From the NCBI GenBank assembly GCA_012513515.1, contig JAAZCA010000014.1, forward strand, positions 1 through 64,000: a stretch of DNA of 64,000 bases, in the 5' to 3' direction. Of this stretch, positions 6,012 through 42,734 are shown one piece after another. Under the pieces are notes generated by a model. That model was given only the letters and a program-made list of their open reading frames with translations. It did no database searches and was not told where the DNA came from. Position 1 is the first letter of the stretch. Each line of letters starts with the position of its first letter. The DNA is from Myxococcales bacterium. GTDB taxonomy: Bacteria; UBA10199; 2-02-FULL-44-16; JAAZCA01. The position numbers were made by a program, and so were the translations under genes.

Positions 6012-7586
6012 ATGAAACTACTCTCCTCCTCACAGATGCGCTCGCTGGACGAAAGCGCTATAACCCAGCATCGGATTCCATCCATGGAACTCATGGAAAA
6101 CGCTGGAAGGGCGCTCGCCGATGTAGCCGCAACCTCTCGTCCTTCCCGGGCAGCAGTCGTATGCGGCAGAGGGAATAACGGCGGTGATGGGCTCGTGGCT
6201 GCGAGGTATCTGATCGGCATGGGGATCGATGTAGCCGTCCTGATTCTGGCCTCGCCTCAGGAGCTCTCCCCCGACGCTAGGGCGAACTGGGAGAGGCTGG
6301 TGAGGATATCCACGAGGGTCTTCCCCTGTACGGATGCTTCGTATTTGAGCAGTCATGCCTCGATCTTGGCGGAGGCCGATCTCATCGTGGACGCTATTTT
6401 CGGAACAGGTCTCAGGGACGAAGTGAAGGGGATATCCCTTCATGCCATAGAGATGATCAACGCGATGAAGGGGCGAAAGTCGCGCGTGGTATCTGCCGAT
6501 ATCCCGTCGGGGCTTTCATCCGATACCGGCATGCCTCTGGGAGGATCCGTCGTTGCTGATGATACGGTTACATTTGCTCTGCCAAAACTCGGCCTTTGTC
6601 TCGGGAGGGGGTTGGAGTATTGCGGAAATATTCATGTCGTCGATATAGGTATTCCGCCGGAGGAGGCGGAGAAGATCCCTTCTAAATATTCTCTAATAGT
6701 CGGGGATGATGTGCGTCGTTCGTTTTTACCGAGAAGAATGAATTCCCATAAGGGGACCTTCGGACATGTGGCGATATTCGCCGGATCGCGAGCCAAGATC
6801 GGAGCGGGGTATCTCTCCTCGAGGGCGGCGCTGAGAAGCGGTTCCGGCCTCGTCACCTATGCGATGCCGGAAAGCGCCTTCGCATTTTTCGATTCGAATT
6901 ATTCTGAGGTGATGTGCGAACCTCTTCCCGATAACGGTAAGGCATTTTTTTGTCATGAATCGCTGGATAAAGCGTTGCATCTTGCGCAGGACAAGAGCGC
7001 CGTCGCGATAGGTCCGGCGATCGGGACGGAGGAGGCGACGCGCGCTTTTCTCAACGCCTTTGTGAGGGATCTCAAAACCAGCTTGGTCATCGATGCCGAC
7101 GGGCTGAACCTGCTCGATCTCTCTTCCCTCAGGATGAGGGGGGCGGCGACCGTTTTGACGCCGCATCCGGGGGAGATGGCCAGGCTCACCAAAAGCGATA
7201 CCGGATTGGTCAATGCGAACAGGACGCAGGCGGCGATCTCTCTTGCGGCTTCCTGTGGGGCAATTGTGGTCCTCAAGGGGATGGGAACGGTAGTCGCTGC
7301 TCCCGATGGACGCTGTGCGATAAATCGAACCGGGAACTCAGGGATGGCATCGGCCGGAATGGGGGACGCACTCACAGGGATCATCCTCTCCCTTCTCGGT
7401 CAGGGGCTGGACCCATTCGATGCGGCCTGCGCCGGAGTTTTCGTTCATGGAATGGCCGGCGACTTTGCCGCTTCGGAAATAGGAGAGCGCGCGCTGATAA
7501 CTTCCGATTTGATAAAAAATCTTCCGCGTGTTTTTTCGAGCATCGAAACTCATAGTCATTCCCGCGGAATAGAACTGGATCCCTGA
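6012..7586 (+). CDS. nnr: bifunctional NAD(P)H-hydrate epimerase / ADP-dependent NAD(P)H-hydrate dehydratase
   Basis: Repairs hydrated NADH and NADPH. The N-terminal YjeF domain (about residues 1-215) epimerises the hydrate and shows CGRGNNGGDGLVAARYL and the DAIFGTGL block. The C-terminal ribokinase-like domain (about 225-510) dehydrates S-NAD(P)HX with ADP and shows the TPHPGEMARL and NSGMASAGMGDALTGI nucleotide-binding motifs. At 524 aa it is a standard fusion. ATG 6012 was chosen because MKLLSSSQMRSLD is how the family starts; an ATG at 5982 overlapping the acpS stop is an alternative. The last eight or so residues (SRGIELDP) are encoded by a dispersed repeat that runs across the stop codon, so the C-terminus looks repeat-derived. 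Confidence 0.94.
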   Translation: MKLLSSSQMRSLDESAITQHRIPSMELMENAGRALADVAATSRPSRAAVVCGRGNNGGDGLVAARYLIGMGIDVAVLILASPQELSPDARANWERLVRISTRVFPCTDASYLSSHASILAEADLIVDAIFGTGLRDEVKGISLHAIEMINAMKGRKSRVVSADIPSGLSSDTGMPLGGSVVADDTVTFALPKLGLCLGRGLEYCGNIHVVDIGIPPEEAEKIPSKYSLIVGDDVRRSFLPRRMNSHKGTFGHVAIFAGSRAKIGAGYLSSRAALRSGSGLVTYAMPESAFAFFDSNYSEVMCEPLPDNGKAFFCHESLDKALHLAQDKSAVAIGPAIGTEEATRAFLNAFVRDLKTSLVIDADGLNLLDLSSLRMRGAATVLTPHPGEMARLTKSDTGLVNANRTQAAISLAASCGAIVVLKGMGTVVAAPDGRCAINRTGNSGMASAGMGDALTGIILSLLGQGLDPFDAACAGVFVHGMAGDFAASEIGERALITSDLIKNLPRVFSSIETHSHSRGIELDP

Positions 7587-7666
7587 TAGAACCATTCGGG
7601 GATGACAATCATAGTGTCATTTCCGCGGTCTTAAGCCGCCGCTAACGCGGGGCAAACGGGAATCCC
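7577..7666. repeat. dispersed intergenic repeat, modules A and B
   Basis: Module A (7577-7606) is a 30-bp imperfect inverted repeat of the form GGATCCCTGAT...TTCGGGGATGAC. Module B (7616-7666) starts GTCATTTCCGCGG and contains AAGCCGCCGCTAACGCGGGG and a final GGGAATCCC. Both recur many times between 7.5 and 42 kb. Here module A overlaps the last codons and stop of nnr. Confidence 0.85.
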
Positions 7667-10968: not shown

Positions 10969-11042
10969 ATAGTGCGATAAAAGCATGTCATCCCCGAGTG
11001 ATGAGAAGGTTGTCATCCCCGAGTGGTGTAGTCGGGGATCCA
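10969..11042. repeat. repeat block left of the HTH/Doc cassette
   Basis: Bases 10969-11002 (ATAGTGCGATAAAAGCATGTCATCCCCGAGTGAT, given here as a 34-nt unit beginning ATAGTGCGATAAAAGC) recur with one mismatch at 11829-11862. Module A in reverse orientation follows at 11012-11042. Confidence 0.8.
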
Positions 11043-11083
11043 GCAATAAGCGTGACTCGATATAAAAATAAAGATATATTAAC

Positions 11084-11803: not shown

Positions 11804-12248
11804 AGGACTGGCAAATTGACCATGGACCATAGTGCGATAAAAGCCTGTCATCCCCGAGTGATTTTATCGGGGATCCCGTAACGACCGTGACTGGTGGAAA
11901 AACAGAGGCTAGAGGTGAGATGTTAGAAACTAGAAAAAAACGGGCTCGTAAAAATCTCGTTTCTCACTTCTAGATTCTAGCTTCTTGATGTCGGTCGATG
12001 GTCAATTGTCGGGTTTAGGATGCATATCCCTGAAAAGAGCTGTTGGCATATTCGTTCAGATATTGTTAGAATGGGCGCCATCATTATTTAAGATTCGGGG
12101 TCCCTTTTATGCGTCAGAAAACGGATGCGCGCCTTATCATAACGAGAATGCCTGTTTCGATTTTTTCGCGTAATCACTTGAAATTATTCATTATTAGCTA
12201 AATCGGCTTTGGCATATAGGTTGCAACGTTATACGCCTGGAGGTTCTT
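11804..12248. other. 445-bp non-coding spacer
   Basis: Besides the repeat block at 11829-11876 it holds an imperfect inverted repeat at about 11904-11987 (AGAGGCTAGA against TCTAGCTTCT) and a CGATGGTCAATTGTC module C-like piece at 11997-12011. The last 200 bp before the large gene are A+T-rich and presumably contain its promoter; I see no convincing -35/-10 pair. A GGAGG lies just before ATG 12249. Confidence 0.5.
11829..11876. repeat. repeat block right of the HTH/Doc cassette
   Basis: Bases 11829-11862 repeat 10969-11002 with a single A/C difference and in the same orientation. They run into a module A copy (11847-11876, reverse orientation). The two blocks bound an 826-bp unit containing only the HTH and Doc genes. 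Confidence 0.8.
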
Positions 12249-17695: not shown

Positions 17696-17800
17696 TCGAA
17701 TCCTGATCGCTGATCCCTGATCTTTGATCAGCATTTTGTAAGATTAGCTTATATTCGAAAACATCCTTATTAAGATTAAGATCAGGATCAAGATTAAGAT
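17696..17800. repeat. 105-bp direct repeat, left copy
   Basis: Begins TCGAATCCTGATCGCTGATC and ends AGATTAAGAT; the same 105 bp occurs at 18603-18707 with two mismatches and in the same orientation. The pair flanks the two divergent four-helix-bundle genes. Confidence 0.9.
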
Positions 17801-17826
17801 GAAGATTAAGATTAAGAGGAAGATTA
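17766..17826. repeat. AAGATT hexanucleotide tract
   Basis: About ten imperfect AAGATT/AAGATC/AAGAGG units in a row. They create a false Asn-Leu-rich reading frame on the minus strand. Part of the tract lies in the 105-bp direct repeat. Confidence 0.75.
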
Positions 17827-17827
17827 A

Positions 17828-18178
17828 TCAAAATATCGGATTAAATTTTTTCATATTGATGATCATAGCATAAGCCCTGCGAAGCAGCGTTTTTAGTTCT
17901 TCCTGATACTTGGCGGATATATATCCATAAGCCGATAGGATATCGATGATCGAGGCGACCTCGGCTATTGAGCCTGGGGAGATATCGAAAAACCGATTTC
18001 TGTCTTTTTGGGACTTTCTGCCATTTCCTTCCGCTAAGTTAAGCAGGGTGCTGGAAAGGGCTCGTTTAAGCTGATCCTCCAGATAGTAATTTCCCCTTGG
18101 AAGAGATCCTATTAGCTCTGGCATTCTTTTTGCGACCGAAAGCAAAAGTCCGTAGCAGTTAAGCCGCTGATGATTCAT
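17828..18178 (-). CDS. four-helix bundle protein (23S rRNA-IVS/S23-like family)
   Basis: A 116-aa all-helical protein with the family's hallmark core: YYLEDQLKRALSSTLLNLAEG then NGRKSQKDRNRFFDIS and GSIAEVASIIDIL. Members of this family (TIGR02436-type) are found inside 23S rRNA intervening sequences, alone in intergenic regions, or as Avd-like helpers of diversity-generating reverse transcriptases. No rRNA or reverse transcriptase is present here. ATG 18178 has GGAGGAGG six bases upstream. It is divergent from, and clearly paralogous to, the gene at 18264-18599 (long identical blocks VAKRMPELIGS, DQLKRALSS, AEGNGRKS). Biochemical function is unknown. Confidence 0.8.
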   Translation of the reverse strand: MNHQRLNCYGLLLSVAKRMPELIGSLPRGNYYLEDQLKRALSSTLLNLAEGNGRKSQKDRNRFFDISPGSIAEVASIIDILSAYGYISAKYQEELKTLLRRAYAMIINMKKFNPIF

Positions 18179-18193
18179 TTAAAACCTCCTCCT

Positions 18194-18251
18194 TGTGATT
18201 TTAATTTCAAAACCTCCCGACCGGCTGAGAGGTTTTGAAATTAAAATCACA
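18194..18251. repeat. perfect 23-bp-arm palindrome between the divergent four-helix-bundle genes
   Basis: Left arm 18194-18216 begins TGTGATTTTAATTTC and ends AAAACCTC; right arm 18229-18251 is its exact reverse complement; the loop is 12 bp (18217-18228). Ribosome-binding sites of the two genes lie just outside the arms (18185-18192 minus, 18255-18259 plus). It could be an operator, an mRNA hairpin in both leaders, or a recombination scar. Confidence 0.9.
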
Positions 18252-18263
18252 GATGGAGGGGTT

Positions 18264-18599
18264 ATGTTCGGACATCAGCGGCTTTACTGCTACAATCTTT
18301 GCCTTGGGGTGGCAAAAAGGATGCCAGAGCTAATCGGATCATGGCCATCGGGGTCAGGATATCTCGTGGATCAGCTTAAACGGGCCCTTTCGAGCGTTAT
18401 ACTGAATATCGCTGAAGGAAATGGTAGAAAGTCGATAAAGGAGAGAAGACGGTTTTTCGATATCGCGATAGGTTCTGCTGCCGAAGTATCCTCTATCTTC
18501 GATGTCGCCAGAGCTTATGGATATATCACCGAGCCAGTCTATGAGGAGCTTCAGTCGGAGCTGCTTCAGGTGGTGAGGATGCTATACAAGCTGAAGTAA
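18264..18599 (+). CDS. four-helix bundle protein (23S rRNA-IVS/S23-like family), second copy
   Basis: A 111-aa paralogue of the divergent gene at 17828-18178, sharing VAKRMPELIGS, YLVDQLKRALSSVILNIAEG and NGRKS, with a conservative C-terminal half (FFDIAIGSAAEVSSIFDVARAYGYI). The start is ATG 18264 with GGAGGGG just upstream; the frame is open further upstream but that part runs through the palindrome and has no ribosome-binding site. The stop is three bases before the right copy of the 105-bp direct repeat. The two proteins may form a hetero-oligomeric bundle, or the pair may be an inverted gene duplication. No catalytic residues are recognisable. Confidence 0.8.
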   Translation: MFGHQRLYCYNLCLGVAKRMPELIGSWPSGSGYLVDQLKRALSSVILNIAEGNGRKSIKERRRFFDIAIGSAAEVSSIFDVARAYGYITEPVYEELQSELLQVVRMLYKLK

Positions 18600-18602
18600 T
18601 CC

Positions 18603-18707
18603 TCGAATCCTGATCCCTAATCCCTGATCTTTGATCAGCATTTTGTAAGATTAGCTTATATTCGAAAACATCCTTATTAAGATTAAGATCAGGATCAAGA
18701 TTAAGAT
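18603..18707. repeat. 105-bp direct repeat, right copy
   Basis: Same sequence and orientation as 17696-17800, with two substitutions near the left end (CGCTGAT against CCCTAAT). Confidence 0.9.
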
Positions 18708-20233: not shown

Positions 20234-20252
20234 ATTTCAAGAAGCAAACTAA

Positions 20253-20403
20253 CTTCGACCATGGACAATTGACCTCTGTTTTTCCCAGTCACGCTTGTTA
20301 CGGGATCCCCGATAGAACCATTCGGGGATGACGACCTTTTCGACACTCGGGGATGACAATCACGCCGTCATTCCCGCGGTTTTAAGCCGCCGCTAACGCG
20401 GGG
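20253..20403. repeat. composite of modules C, A and B
   Basis: Module C at 20253-20302, module A at 20303-20332, a second half A (CTCGGGGATGAC, 20346-20357) and module B at 20367-20403. The order C-A-B shows that the modules travel together. Confidence 0.8.
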
Positions 20404-24328: not shown

Positions 24329-24430
24329 AAGGTCGTCATCACCGAATGGTTCTATCGGGGATCCCGCAACGACCGTGACTTGTGACTAGTGACTCGTAAC
24401 TGGTGAACGGTTGGAACGGGATCCCGCAAC
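24329..24430. repeat. repeat block right of the ATPase cassette
   Basis: Contains a module A variant (24337-24365, GTCATCACCGAATGG...CGGGGATCC), the 29-nt unit at 24389-24417 identical to 22607-22635, and GGGATCCCGCAAC pieces. It abuts the start of lipA. Confidence 0.8.
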
Positions 24431-25321: not shown

Positions 25322-25747
25322 ATGGTCACTGTCGAAAAATCGATACTCATAGGATCCCCGCGCGAAAAGGTCTTTGATGTAATATCGGCCTTTGAAGAGT
25401 ACCCCGAATTTTTGGATGAAGTTACAAGGGCGAAAATAATCAAAAAATCGCCCAAGGGATCAACCGCTCAGTTTACGATGAACGTGATGCAGGAGGTTTC
25501 CTACACCTTGAAATTCTCCTCCGATAAACCTGAGAAACTTTCATGGAGCTTTATCGAGGGAGACAAACTTCTAAAGGATAACCGCGGTTGGTGGGGGCTT
25601 AAATCTAAAAACAGGAAGGCTACTGAACTTACCTATCACATAGACCTCGAGTTTTCTATCTGGCTTCCGGAGTCGATGGTTTTGGGGTTGCTTTCCGAAC
25701 ACGTCGAGAAGATGCTGGCAAAAGTCAAGGCGCGGGTGGAAAAATGA
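25322..25747 (+). CDS. SRPBCC/START-like protein (Coq10/RatA family)
   Basis: A 141-aa single-domain protein of the START-like polyketide-cyclase fold. It has the usual N-terminal IGSPREKVFDVISAFEEYPEFL (helix-grip entry), central antiparallel strands and a long amphipathic C-terminal helix (LGLLSEHVEKMLAKVKARVE). Members bind hydrophobic ligands; Coq10 handles quinones and E. coli RatA has been described as a ribosome-association toxin. Nothing here indicates toxicity. AAAGGAG in the end of lipA serves as the ribosome-binding site two codons away, so it is translationally linked to lipA. A lipid or lipoyl-related role is possible but not shown. Confidence 0.8.
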   Translation: MVTVEKSILIGSPREKVFDVISAFEEYPEFLDEVTRAKIIKKSPKGSTAQFTMNVMQEVSYTLKFSSDKPEKLSWSFIEGDKLLKDNRGWWGLKSKNRKATELTYHIDLEFSIWLPESMVLGLLSEHVEKMLAKVKARVEK

Positions 25748-25767
25748 CAGCCTCTTCACCACTCACC

Positions 25768-25837
25768 AGTCACGGCTGTTACGGGATCCCCGATAAAAGC
25801 ACTCGGGGATGACACCATGAATGTCATTCCCGCATGC
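25768..25837. repeat. dispersed intergenic repeat, modules A and B (partial)
   Basis: CAGTCACGGCTGTTACGG leads into module A at 25783-25812, followed by a truncated module B (GTCATTCCCGCATGCT, 25823-25838). It sits between convergent genes and touches the shc stop codon. Confidence 0.75.
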
Positions 25838-25838
25838 T

Positions 25839-27917
25839 TTATACTTCTTTCCCAGGGCTGAGCTCCTTGGCATATCTCCCAAGTGCCAGAAGAGGAAAGT
25901 AGTGGCGGTATCCGTGATATCTGATGTAGAAATGCCTCTCGAATCCGGTCCCCGTATAATGCTTCTCATCCCATCCGCCCTCTGCATTGCGGTTGTTCAG
26001 AAGCCAGGCAGCCCCGCGACTTGCGGCCTTTCCCTTGGCGCGACCGCCGGCAATCAGCCCCATGAGGGCCCAGGCAGTCTGCGATGGGAGGCTGACGTTA
26101 TAGCCGGAAAACTCTTTGACATCCTCGTATGTAATAGGGGATTCACTCCAGCCCCCATCTGCCCTTTGGATTGACTCCAGCCAATTCAGGGCCTTCACTA
26201 TGCGCTCATCGGATGGATCTACGCCGATAGCGGAAAGGCCCATAAGTACATTCCAGGTCCCGTAGATGTAATTTACGCCCCATCTGCCGAACCATGCGCC
26301 GAAGGGTTTCTGGCGGTTCCAGATGAACTCTATTGCGCGGGCGACGCGAGGGTCATCCTTCGTATAACCTTTTGTGACAAGGTACTCGAGCATCCTTCCG
26401 GTGATATCCGGGGTCGAGGGGTCGAGGCATGCCTTGTGGTCCGAAAAGGGTATTCGATTGACGAGCTGCTGATTCTGGTTGATATCGAAGGCCCCCCAGC
26501 CGCCATCCTTGCATTGCATGGAGAGCATCCAGTCTATGCCAACGGCAACCGCCTCAGATTTTTCCTCCTCCGGAATAGCTGTCCTGTCTATGGCCGTGAG
26601 GACCTCTATCGTGTCATCGACGTCAGGAAAATAGTCATTCTCAAATTCGAAGGACCACCCGCCTGGTTTTGCAAGGGGGTTTTTGATCTTCCAGTCGCCT
26701 TTTACTGTTCTTATCTGTTTCCCTATGAGCCATCTGGCTGCCTTGAGAAGGGCGGGGTGGTCAGGAGGGAGTCCCGTCTCGAGAAGCGCCATCATCATCC
26801 ATGGCGTATCCCATACCGGCGATATGCAGCACTGCTGATGTATCCTATTTCCGTCGCTTTTGGAAACAAATGGGTCCTTGCCAATCTCACGAATTTTCGA
26901 CGGGCGTGCTGCAGGGGTGTCGCGAATTTCATCCGGAAGCGCAGGTATTTCAGCTGTCGCATAACGCTGTTGAAACATTTTTAGCGCCTGGAAGGGCTTT
27001 CTTATCTGCGGCGAATCGTTGTGATATCCGATGGCTTTGAATGCAAGGGCACAGTAAGCCAGCGCGGGATATATGTCCTCGGTCCTCTTTACATGCTCCC
27101 ATGTCCATTCAGAACACTTTGAAATCGCATACTTACGTAGTGGACTAATAGGTATTTTGTTAAGGATCTTTAAAGCTTTATCTGTGATTAGGAACATATT
27201 TTCAATAGAGATAAGGCCTTTTTCATGCTTAAACCGAAACTTTCTCTGTTCAGGTTTATCTCTAAAGAGCTCGTCTAATGTTATGTTATTAGGAGCTTTT
27301 TTATTTTTTTTCAGCGTCATGAAAATTAGCAGAGGCACGATCGTAGCGCGCGCCCAGCTGGAGAACTCGTATATGTTAAATGGTATCCAGTTCGGCATCA
27401 GTATAAACCATGCCGGCATCTCAGGGCATGCCGACCACGGGATGATGCCGAACATGGCAAGGTGTATCTTTGTGAAAACACGACATTCCTCTATTCCGCC
27501 ATTTTTGACGATGTATTGTCTGGCTTTGACCATATTTTCATCATCGGCCGGGACGCCGGCTATGCGCAATGCGAAATAAGACTCGATCGTCGTGGAGAGA
27601 TCGGGAGGGCCATCGTGATAGATAGCCCAGGTTCCATCTGAACGCTGGACATCGAGGATTCGGTTTTTGATTCCTTCCTGAATTTCAGCATCGACCTCGC
27701 CGAGATAGTGCATGAGGTATATAAACTCCGCTCCGATCGTCTCGTTGGCCTCAAGGGAATACCACCAGTATCCATCCTGGCGCTGCTGGGAAAGAAATCG
27801 TTCGACGGTGGGGGCGAGTGAGGAGAGCAGCCCATCCCGCGTAAGCTCTTTAGCGTCAGCGGGTGTCGGTTCGAGATCCCTTGAAATGCTCTCTTTTATA
27901 GCTGCGTTATCCTTCAT
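25839..27917 (-). CDS. shc: squalene-hopene cyclase
   Basis: Cyclises squalene to hopene/hopanol, precursor of hopanoids that order bacterial membranes. The 692-aa alpha-alpha-barrel protein has the catalytic acid motif DVDDT (residues 432-436) and several QW repeats (QRQDGYWW, QRSDGTW, QCKDGGWG, QRADGGW, NAEGGWDE). ATG 27917 has GGAGG eight bases upstream; an in-frame TTG lies at 27932 but would cover the ribosome-binding site. It probably associates with the inner membrane as a monotopic protein. No squalene synthase (hpnCDE) or other hpn genes are nearby. A segment encoding about residues 200-280 is noticeably A+T-richer than the rest. Confidence 0.94.
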   Translation of the reverse strand: MKDNAAIKESISRDLEPTPADAKELTRDGLLSSLAPTVERFLSQQRQDGYWWYSLEANETIGAEFIYLMHYLGEVDAEIQEGIKNRILDVQRSDGTWAIYHDGPPDLSTTIESYFALRIAGVPADDENMVKARQYIVKNGGIEECRVFTKIHLAMFGIIPWSACPEMPAWFILMPNWIPFNIYEFSSWARATIVPLLIFMTLKKNKKAPNNITLDELFRDKPEQRKFRFKHEKGLISIENMFLITDKALKILNKIPISPLRKYAISKCSEWTWEHVKRTEDIYPALAYCALAFKAIGYHNDSPQIRKPFQALKMFQQRYATAEIPALPDEIRDTPAARPSKIREIGKDPFVSKSDGNRIHQQCCISPVWDTPWMMMALLETGLPPDHPALLKAARWLIGKQIRTVKGDWKIKNPLAKPGGWSFEFENDYFPDVDDTIEVLTAIDRTAIPEEEKSEAVAVGIDWMLSMQCKDGGWGAFDINQNQQLVNRIPFSDHKACLDPSTPDITGRMLEYLVTKGYTKDDPRVARAIEFIWNRQKPFGAWFGRWGVNYIYGTWNVLMGLSAIGVDPSDERIVKALNWLESIQRADGGWSESPITYEDVKEFSGYNVSLPSQTAWALMGLIAGGRAKGKAASRGAAWLLNNRNAEGGWDEKHYTGTGFERHFYIRYHGYRHYFPLLALGRYAKELSPGKEV

Positions 27918-31827: not shown

Positions 31828-31999
31828 GTTTGGTGCTATATTTTTTTCCTCTCCATTTGTCAGCATCCCCCAATTTTGCGGGCCGTTAAGCCAGATAATG
31901 AAAAAATAGTCAATGAAAAGTTAGTGTTTCTACGGAATGGTCGAAACAGGATCTCTGTAATTACTTCAGGAATTTCTGAAAAGCTAGCTGCAACAATAA

Positions 32000-32121
32000 C
32001 TTCGACCATGGACGATTGACCTCTGTTTTTCCCAGTCACGCTTGTTACGGGATCCCCGATTACACCACTCGGGGATGACAAGCGCATAGTTTTTAGAGGT
32101 GCCCTGAATTTGCTGATTTCT
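32000..32121. repeat. composite of modules C, A and E
   Basis: Module C at 32000-32049, module A at 32050-32079, then module E (GATGACAAGCGCATAG...GGTGCCCTGAATTTGCTGATTT, 32074-32121), which recurs inverted at 40685-40738. Confidence 0.8.
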
Positions 32122-42523: not shown

Positions 42524-42676
42524 CTACTTCCTGGTCTTTCTCCTCGGGGACGCCTTCTTCTTTGCTACTTTTTTCTTCTTCACTACCTTTTTCTTCTTTG
42601 CCACTTTTTTCTTCTTCACTACCTTTTTCTTCTTCGCCACCTTCTTTTTCTTCGCTACTTTCTTCTTGCAAACCAT
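42524..42676 (-). CDS. 50-aa lysine-repeat protein, possible nucleoid-associated protein
   Basis: A tiny, extremely basic protein: 28 Lys and 3 Arg in 50 residues. After MVCKKK come six hexapeptide repeats of the form V(A/V)KKKK, encoded by near-identical 18-bp DNA repeats, then a tail ASPRRKTRK. ATG 42676 has GGAGGG directly upstream; the longer frame starting at 42730 lies at the predicted transcription start and is not plausible. A consensus promoter (42735-42763) and a strong terminator (42473-42496) make this a stand-alone, probably well expressed gene. The composition resembles histone H1-like bacterial proteins and the lysine-rich tails of some ribosomal or DNA-binding proteins; DNA or RNA binding is an inference. 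Confidence 0.8.
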   Translation of the reverse strand: MVCKKKVAKKKKVAKKKKVVKKKKVAKKKKVVKKKKVAKKKASPRRKTRK

Positions 42677-42734
42677 TTTCCCCCTCCTTTGCAAAAAAGG
42701 TTGTAAATCAAGTACTTCTGCCAAATCCAAGGTA

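What the first reader, a model, noticed from the sequence alone, without database searches (positions are those of the whole stretch)
17696..18707. Divergent four-helix-bundle paralogues around a perfect 23-bp-arm palindrome
Two clearly paralogous S23/IVS-type genes face away from each other. The 58-bp region between them is a palindrome with 23-bp perfect arms, and the whole unit sits in 105-bp direct repeats. The symmetry (both ribosome-binding sites just outside the arms) suggests that a single inverted-duplication event or a mobile unit created it. Family members elsewhere move with rRNA intervening sequences, but no rRNA is present here.
Basis: partly seen in the sequence, partly recalled or inferred. 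Interest (0 to 1): 0.68.

Follow-up and report, generated by a model that had tools for sequence, protein, structure and literature searches.

The report
Dispersed two-gene element with central hairpin
A pair of related small genes pointing away from each other around a near-perfect DNA hairpin is one copy of a small dispersed genetic element. It recurs many times in this and distant bacteria, always with the hairpin but with different hairpin sequences, and it resembles a two-gene version of the selfish 'intervening sequences' known from ribosomal RNA genes.

Summary
Two PF05635 (S23/IVP) genes diverge from a 58-bp palindrome with 23-bp perfect arms; random windows give at most 12. The unit is not unique. 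The same genome has four copies at unrelated sites. About 20 more lie in relatives and in a second, distant class. In all 25 hairpins compared, the arms pair 92-94% within a unit but match only 39-49% between genomes. The loop motif TCA...GG is shared, and the loop is inverted in several copies. Arm homogenisation plus loop inversion is the known signature of replication template switching.

Both genes are under purifying selection (dN/dS 0.03-0.25). Homology between copies stops just outside the genes, and three units carry 24-114-bp direct repeats copied from the 3' end of a host gene, so dispersal is well supported. No transposase or reverse transcriptase is found. The 105-bp repeats belong to a dispersed repeat, not fixed unit ends. 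One recent duplication is not supported.

Also new here: 44 of 95 free-standing single IVP genes are bracketed by inverted short-repeat arrays, many beside tRNA genes. What the hairpin does, and how the unit moves, is inferred.

The parts
17828..18178 (-). left IVP/S23 gene (type N, 116 aa, starts MNHQRL)
   Evidence: PF05635 E 1.4e-18, TIGR02436; dN/dS 0.05-0.25 between genome copies
18264..18599 (+). right IVP/S23 gene (type L, 111 aa, starts MFGHQRL)
   Evidence: PF05635 E 2.2e-22, TIGR02436; dN/dS 0.03-0.15 between genome copies
18194..18216 (.). left arm of the central palindrome, TGTGATTTTAATTTCAAAACCTC
   Evidence: unchanged in the other copies of the genome
18217..18228 (.). 12-nt loop; its reverse complement TCAGCCGGTCGG matches the TCA...GG loop of other units, so it is inverted relative to the C30, C9 and C4 copies
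18229..18251 (.). right arm of the central palindrome
18185..18194 (-). Shine-Dalgarno of the left gene (AAGGAGGAGG on - strand)
   Evidence: read
18255..18261 (+). Shine-Dalgarno of the right gene (GGAGGGG)
   Evidence: read
17793..18675 (.). extent of homology between this unit and the C30 copy (87% over 883 bp); the C9 copy covers 17806-18646
   Evidence: coordinates = offset 16500 + blastn range
17696..17800 (.). left copy of dispersed repeat R: degenerate TGATCNC array, about 45-nt core, degenerate ATTAAG array
18603..18707 (.). right copy of dispersed repeat R, 98% identical to the left copy
17801..17827 (.). degenerate (ATTAAG/GAAGAT)n array at the left outer end of the unit

Best explanation
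The locus is one copy of a dispersed, IVS-like selfish element of about 0.85 kb with an inverted two-gene plan: two diverged IVP/S23 (Avd-like four-helix-bundle) genes read outwards from a central hairpin and are followed by degenerate short-repeat arrays. Shown: the hairpin is present in every intact unit of two distant classes, with a shared loop motif and coordinated arm changes; both proteins are under purifying selection; copies sit at unrelated sites; three units are bracketed by duplicated host sequence from gene 3' ends. Inferred: template switching keeps the arms identical and flips the loop. Also inferred: the hairpin, as RNA or single-stranded DNA, is the structure that the two Avd-like proteins (probably as a mixed oligomer) recognise, for spreading of the unit or for control of its own messages. 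How new copies are made is not known.
For: Four palindromic units in the genome, with homology confined to the unit. Units in G001, G003, G004, G042 and in the class of G053. 25 hairpins: 94%/92% pairing within a unit against 39%/49% arm identity between genomes; loop TCAnnn..GG. Arms identical in three G000 copies although dS between these copies is 0.18-0.59 and dN/dS is 0.03-0.13. Loop inverted between near-identical units (WIN against C30; G053 C3a against C2a). Template switching is documented to homogenise arms and invert spacers (PMC8604942). Nine units without the palindrome also lack N-terminal codons. Direct repeats from gene 3' ends in L121, L123 and L120. Proteins match solved S23 protein 2GSC, E 3e-16, which the literature describes as a homopentamer and aligns with DGR Avd (PMC4990558; PMC10053308). 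The whole unit as RNA folds to -400 kcal/mol, z -20.5.
Against: Template switching can by itself create coordinated arm changes, so covariation does not prove a functional structure. Only three of about 30 units show unique flanking direct repeats; most show none above chance. Loop orientation is not fixed relative to the genes, which argues against a simple role in one gene's mRNA. Outer ends of the pair units do not form a clear terminal inverted repeat. No mobility enzyme identified; no binding data.
Confidence: 0.6

Rival explanations
1. The palindrome is only a mutational by-product: after an old inverted duplication, replication template switching keeps perfecting the centre, and the sequence itself has no function.
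For: Loop inversions and perfect arms are what template switching produces (PMC8604942). Arm length varies from about 20 to 43 and in G078 runs into the coding sequence. G078's two genes are nearly identical.
Against: The same loop motif TCA...GG and the same geometry occur in two distant classes. Three G000 copies have identical arms despite high synonymous divergence. Palindromes tend to be lost, yet every intact pair keeps one.
Confidence: 0.25
2. A static divergent gene pair with a symmetrical operator or promoter: the palindrome is the binding site through which the proteins or a host regulator control both genes.
For: Position between two start codons with ribosome-binding sites just outside the arms; constant start-to-start geometry.
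Against: No -10-like box above chance in 25 intergenic regions. Arm sequences differ completely between genomes and even between units of one genome (G003), unlike an operator shared by one regulator. Units are multicopy and dispersed.
Confidence: 0.2
3. A bidirectional terminator or insulator that stops read-through from convergent neighbours.
For: In the second class the inner stem is followed by T-tracts on both strands (GAACTTTTTTTT); 10 of 26 units lie between convergent genes.
Against: In the window's own class the stem is followed by A-rich sequence, not T. Termination in front of both start codons would silence the genes that selection maintains.
Confidence: 0.07
4. A former 23S rRNA intervening sequence that escaped into intergenic DNA, now decaying.
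For: Same protein family as rRNA IVS ORFs. The Coxiella IVS has a 28-bp terminal stem and heptamer repeats before its S23p gene (PMC4990558), as free-standing single IVP genes do here.
Against: Genes are under purifying selection, not decaying. Pair-type proteins form their own clade. The only two relatives with an assembled 23S stretch carry no IVP gene in it. No 23S in this genome to test.
Confidence: 0.1

Closest known systems
23S rRNA intervening sequences (IVS) with S23p ORF (Coxiella, Leptospira, Brucella)
   Same: Encodes a PF05635/S23 four-helix-bundle protein in a small strongly folded element; single-gene relatives here have flanking stems and degenerate short repeats, as the Coxiella IVS does (PMC4990558)
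   Different: Not in rRNA; two divergent paralogous genes; hairpin in the centre instead of a stem around the ORF; many copies per genome; genes conserved instead of decaying
Avd accessory protein of diversity-generating retroelements
   Same: Structural relatives of PF05635 (PMC10053308); weak PHROG hit to Avd, E 0.053
   Different: No reverse transcriptase beside the unit and none found anywhere in G000, G003, G042, G053, G077 or G083; no TR/VR seen
REP/REPIN-RAYT or IS200/IS605 hairpin elements (from own knowledge)
   Same: Small dispersed elements built around hairpins; 20-odd gene-less R repeats share the unit's outer arms
   Different: No Y1 transposase in the unit; the hairpin lies between two IVP genes; arm sequence is not conserved

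Membership tests
PF05635 / TIGR02436 (S23, 23S rRNA-intervening sequence protein) | profile score over curated cut-off | tested here: met
   67.5 and 79.7 bits against 33.8; 64 and 79 against 24
rRNA intervening sequence (IVS) | lies inside an rRNA gene (helix 9, 25 or 45) | tested here: not met
   no rRNA in the window; neighbours are protein genes
rRNA intervening sequence (IVS) | terminal inverted repeats form a stem around the ORF | tested here: not met
   outer flanks of the pair unit have a best inverted-repeat score of 11, no more than unrelated flanks give; the central palindrome is between the genes instead
rRNA intervening sequence (IVS) | excised from RNA by RNase III | not testable with these tools
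   the unit would form about 790 nt of folded RNA, but there are no RNA data
Diversity-generating retroelement | reverse transcriptase gene | tested here: not met
   PF00078 absent from G000 (99.3% complete) and five other pair-bearing genomes
Diversity-generating retroelement | template repeat / variable repeat pair | not tested
   no RT, so not pursued
Classical insertion sequence | transposase gene inside the element | tested here: not met
   only the two IVP genes are recognisable in the ORF listing of 17.6-18.7 kb
Mobile genetic element (general) | copies at non-homologous sites with homology ending at the element | tested here: met
Mobile genetic element (general) | target-site duplication | tested here: inconclusive
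   clear in L121, L123 and L120; not detectable in most units

The most novel reading that the evidence does not exclude
A new class of bacterial mobile element: an inverted gene pair around a loop-marked hairpin whose Avd-like proteins drive its copying, without a transposase or reverse transcriptase of its own, into the 3' ends of host genes with long (24-114 bp) target duplications. It would be the intergenic double form of a wider family of IVS-like elements bracketed by short-repeat stems.
Probability: 0.25. Interest if true: 0.85.

Novelty: new variant of a known kind. Interest (0 to 1): 0.62.

Why it matters
S23/IVP proteins are widespread and of unknown function, and how rRNA intervening sequences arise and spread is an open question. 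A multicopy intergenic form, with conserved genes, a hairpin that can be compared across two classes, and target duplications in some copies, gives a direct handle: which nucleic acid do these Avd-like pentamers bind, and how is the element copied. It also suggests that IVS-like elements are far commoner outside rRNA, including between tRNA genes, than the name implies.

Tried and rejected
Viral contigs: no relative of the pair found; phages: no match; plasmids: only distant single IVP genes in cyanobacteria and Azospirillum. Defence library: no hit. RT-driven (DGR) spreading: no RT in most pair-bearing genomes. 23S intervening sequence in relatives: only LAGLIDADG-like ORFs found. Promoter in the palindrome: no -10 match beyond shuffles. 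MAFFT alignment of hairpins was out of structural register, so pair counting on it was dropped in favour of arm-anchored counts. R repeat as a strong RNA hairpin: z only -1.0 and -2.3. One common split of the two paralogue types across both classes: rejected by the AU test under a motif-based label that is unreliable in the second class.

Full report
CHECK. The window holds two PF05635 genes facing away from each other, 17828-18178 (-) and 18264-18599 (+), separated by 85 bp that contain a 58-bp palindrome with 23-bp perfect arms, 18194-18216 and 18229-18251. No other perfect inverted repeat in the window has arms over 12, and 20 random windows of the same dinucleotide content had maxima of 9-12. 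The 105-bp direct repeats (17696-17800, 18603-18707; 98%) exist, but they are members of a dispersed repeat with 23 matches in this genome. That repeat consists of a degenerate TGATCNC array, a core of about 45 nt, and a degenerate ATTAAG array.

COPIES IN THIS GENOME. The genome (a 1.79-Mb draft, 99% complete) has 12 PF05635 genes. Eight belong to four divergent units with the same palindrome: the window, C30, C9, and one whose halves sit at the ends of contigs C4 and C29, probably because assembly broke at the palindrome. Homology between the three complete units ends just outside the genes (883, 846 and 841 bp at 87-93%), and the neighbouring genes differ. The dN/dS ratios between copies are 0.03-0.15 (right gene) and 0.05-0.25 (left gene), with dS 0.09-0.73. 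The 23-bp arms are the same in the three complete copies, whose dS is 0.18-0.59. So both proteins and the hairpin are conserved while silent sites drift.

RELATIVES. The same arrangement occurs in G001, G003, G004 and G042 (same class; records name some as deltaproteobacterial or Bdellovibrio-labelled metagenome genomes) and in many genomes of the class of G053, which is related only at domain level. In 25 hairpins the arms pair 94% (window's class) and 92% (second class) within a unit, but ungapped arm identity between genomes is only 39% and 49%. The loop keeps a motif, TCA, three to five bases, then GG.GG or GGCAG, in both classes. The loop is inverted between otherwise near-identical units: window against C30, C9 and C4, and G053 C3a against C2a with the identical 12-nt loop. 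Such inversion together with arm homogenisation is the documented signature of polymerase template switching at inverted repeats (PMC8604942). This warns that covariation alone does not prove selection for pairing; the shared loop motif, constant geometry and universal presence in intact pairs are the better evidence for function. Nine units that lack the palindrome have also lost N-terminal codons.

PARALOGUES. Pair-type proteins form a clade apart from single IVPs (92/79 support). In the window's class each of 14 units has one N-type gene (F.IS..SI) and one L-type gene (F.IA..SA/V). In the tree G000's left genes group with N-type genes of other genera and its right genes fall with L-type genes, so the duplication here is older than the genera. 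The G001/G003/G004 genes form their own subclade with both types, and G078's two genes are nearly identical with 43-bp arms, so homogenisation or renewed duplication also happens.

INSERTION. In G053 two units follow a host gene whose last 8-11 codons and stop are repeated on the far side (L121, 24 bp, one mismatch; L123, 33 bp); in a third (L120) a diverged repeat of up to 114 bp copies the 3' end of a host gene. A genome search found only the two copies of the L120 repeat. Most other units show no direct repeat beyond chance or only degenerate arrays. Of 26 units with both neighbours identified, 10 lie between convergent genes, 13 between co-directional and 3 between divergent ones.

MECHANISM. 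As RNA the whole unit would form one fold of -400 kcal/mol (z -20.5), because the two genes themselves are inverted repeats. No -10-like box stands out between the genes. No reverse transcriptase is present in G000, G003, G042, G053, G077 or G083, and the unit carries no transposase. The nearest solved structure is 2GSC (E 3e-16), reported as a homopentamer (PMC4990558) and aligned with DGR Avd (PMC10053308). The proposal that the two Avd-like proteins recognise the hairpin is inference; so is the route of copying.

GENERAL CONTEXT. Free-standing single IVP genes from many phyla were compared with mismatched flanks as control: 44 of 95 have flanking inverted repeats beyond the 99% null, and the best-scoring ones are arrays of degenerate six- to nine-base repeats close to the gene. 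The rRNA IVS of Coxiella likewise has a terminal stem and heptamers before S23p. Of 22 tRNA genes found in these flanks, 20 lie within 300 bp of the IVP gene (4.9 expected), 18 of them on the same strand. The IVS-like plan thus appears widespread outside rRNA, and the window's unit is an inverted double version of it. I found no description of this in the held literature, but many subscription papers are not held.

LIMITS. Genomes are drafts, often broken at the palindromes, so copy numbers are minimal. Relatedness between loci was not corrected for in the counts. No 23S gene is assembled in this genome.

Noticed in passing
L001, L002, L003, L012, L058-L086, L163-L224: 44 of 95 single free-standing IVP genes are bracketed by inverted repeats beyond the 99% null, the best of them arrays of degenerate 6-9-mers.
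   Followed up: partly
L002, L003, L012, L071, L078-L082, L163, L165, L173, L179, L208, L239, L246: A subset of single IVP genes lies just downstream of, or between, tRNA genes on the same strand (20 of 22 tRNAs within 300 bp; 4.9 expected), as if an IVS sat in a tRNA transcript; the L012 copy is a pseudogene between tRNA genes.
   Followed up: partly
17696-17800, 18603-18707; L013-L035: Dispersed repeat R with about 23 matches in the genome; its two ends resemble the outer ends of the IVP unit, so it may be a gene-less derivative.
   Followed up: partly
L305, L306 (23S rRNA of G080 and G033): 23S rRNA regions contain LAGLIDADG-like ORFs instead of an IVP-type intervening sequence; archease- and RtcB-like ORFs lie near the G080 23S (named by eye).
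   Followed up: no
7555-7652, 11012-11061, 11847-11896, 20250-20403, 24335-24384, 25731-25859, 31997-32079: Mosaic families of other intergenic repeats (GTCATTCCCG..., GACCATGGACAATTG..., AGTCACGGCTGTTACGGGATCC...) between many genes of the window.
   Followed up: no
42555-42680: 18-bp tandem repeat TTCTTCTTYRCYACYTTY, probably a Lys/Ala-rich coding repeat read on the - strand.
   Followed up: no
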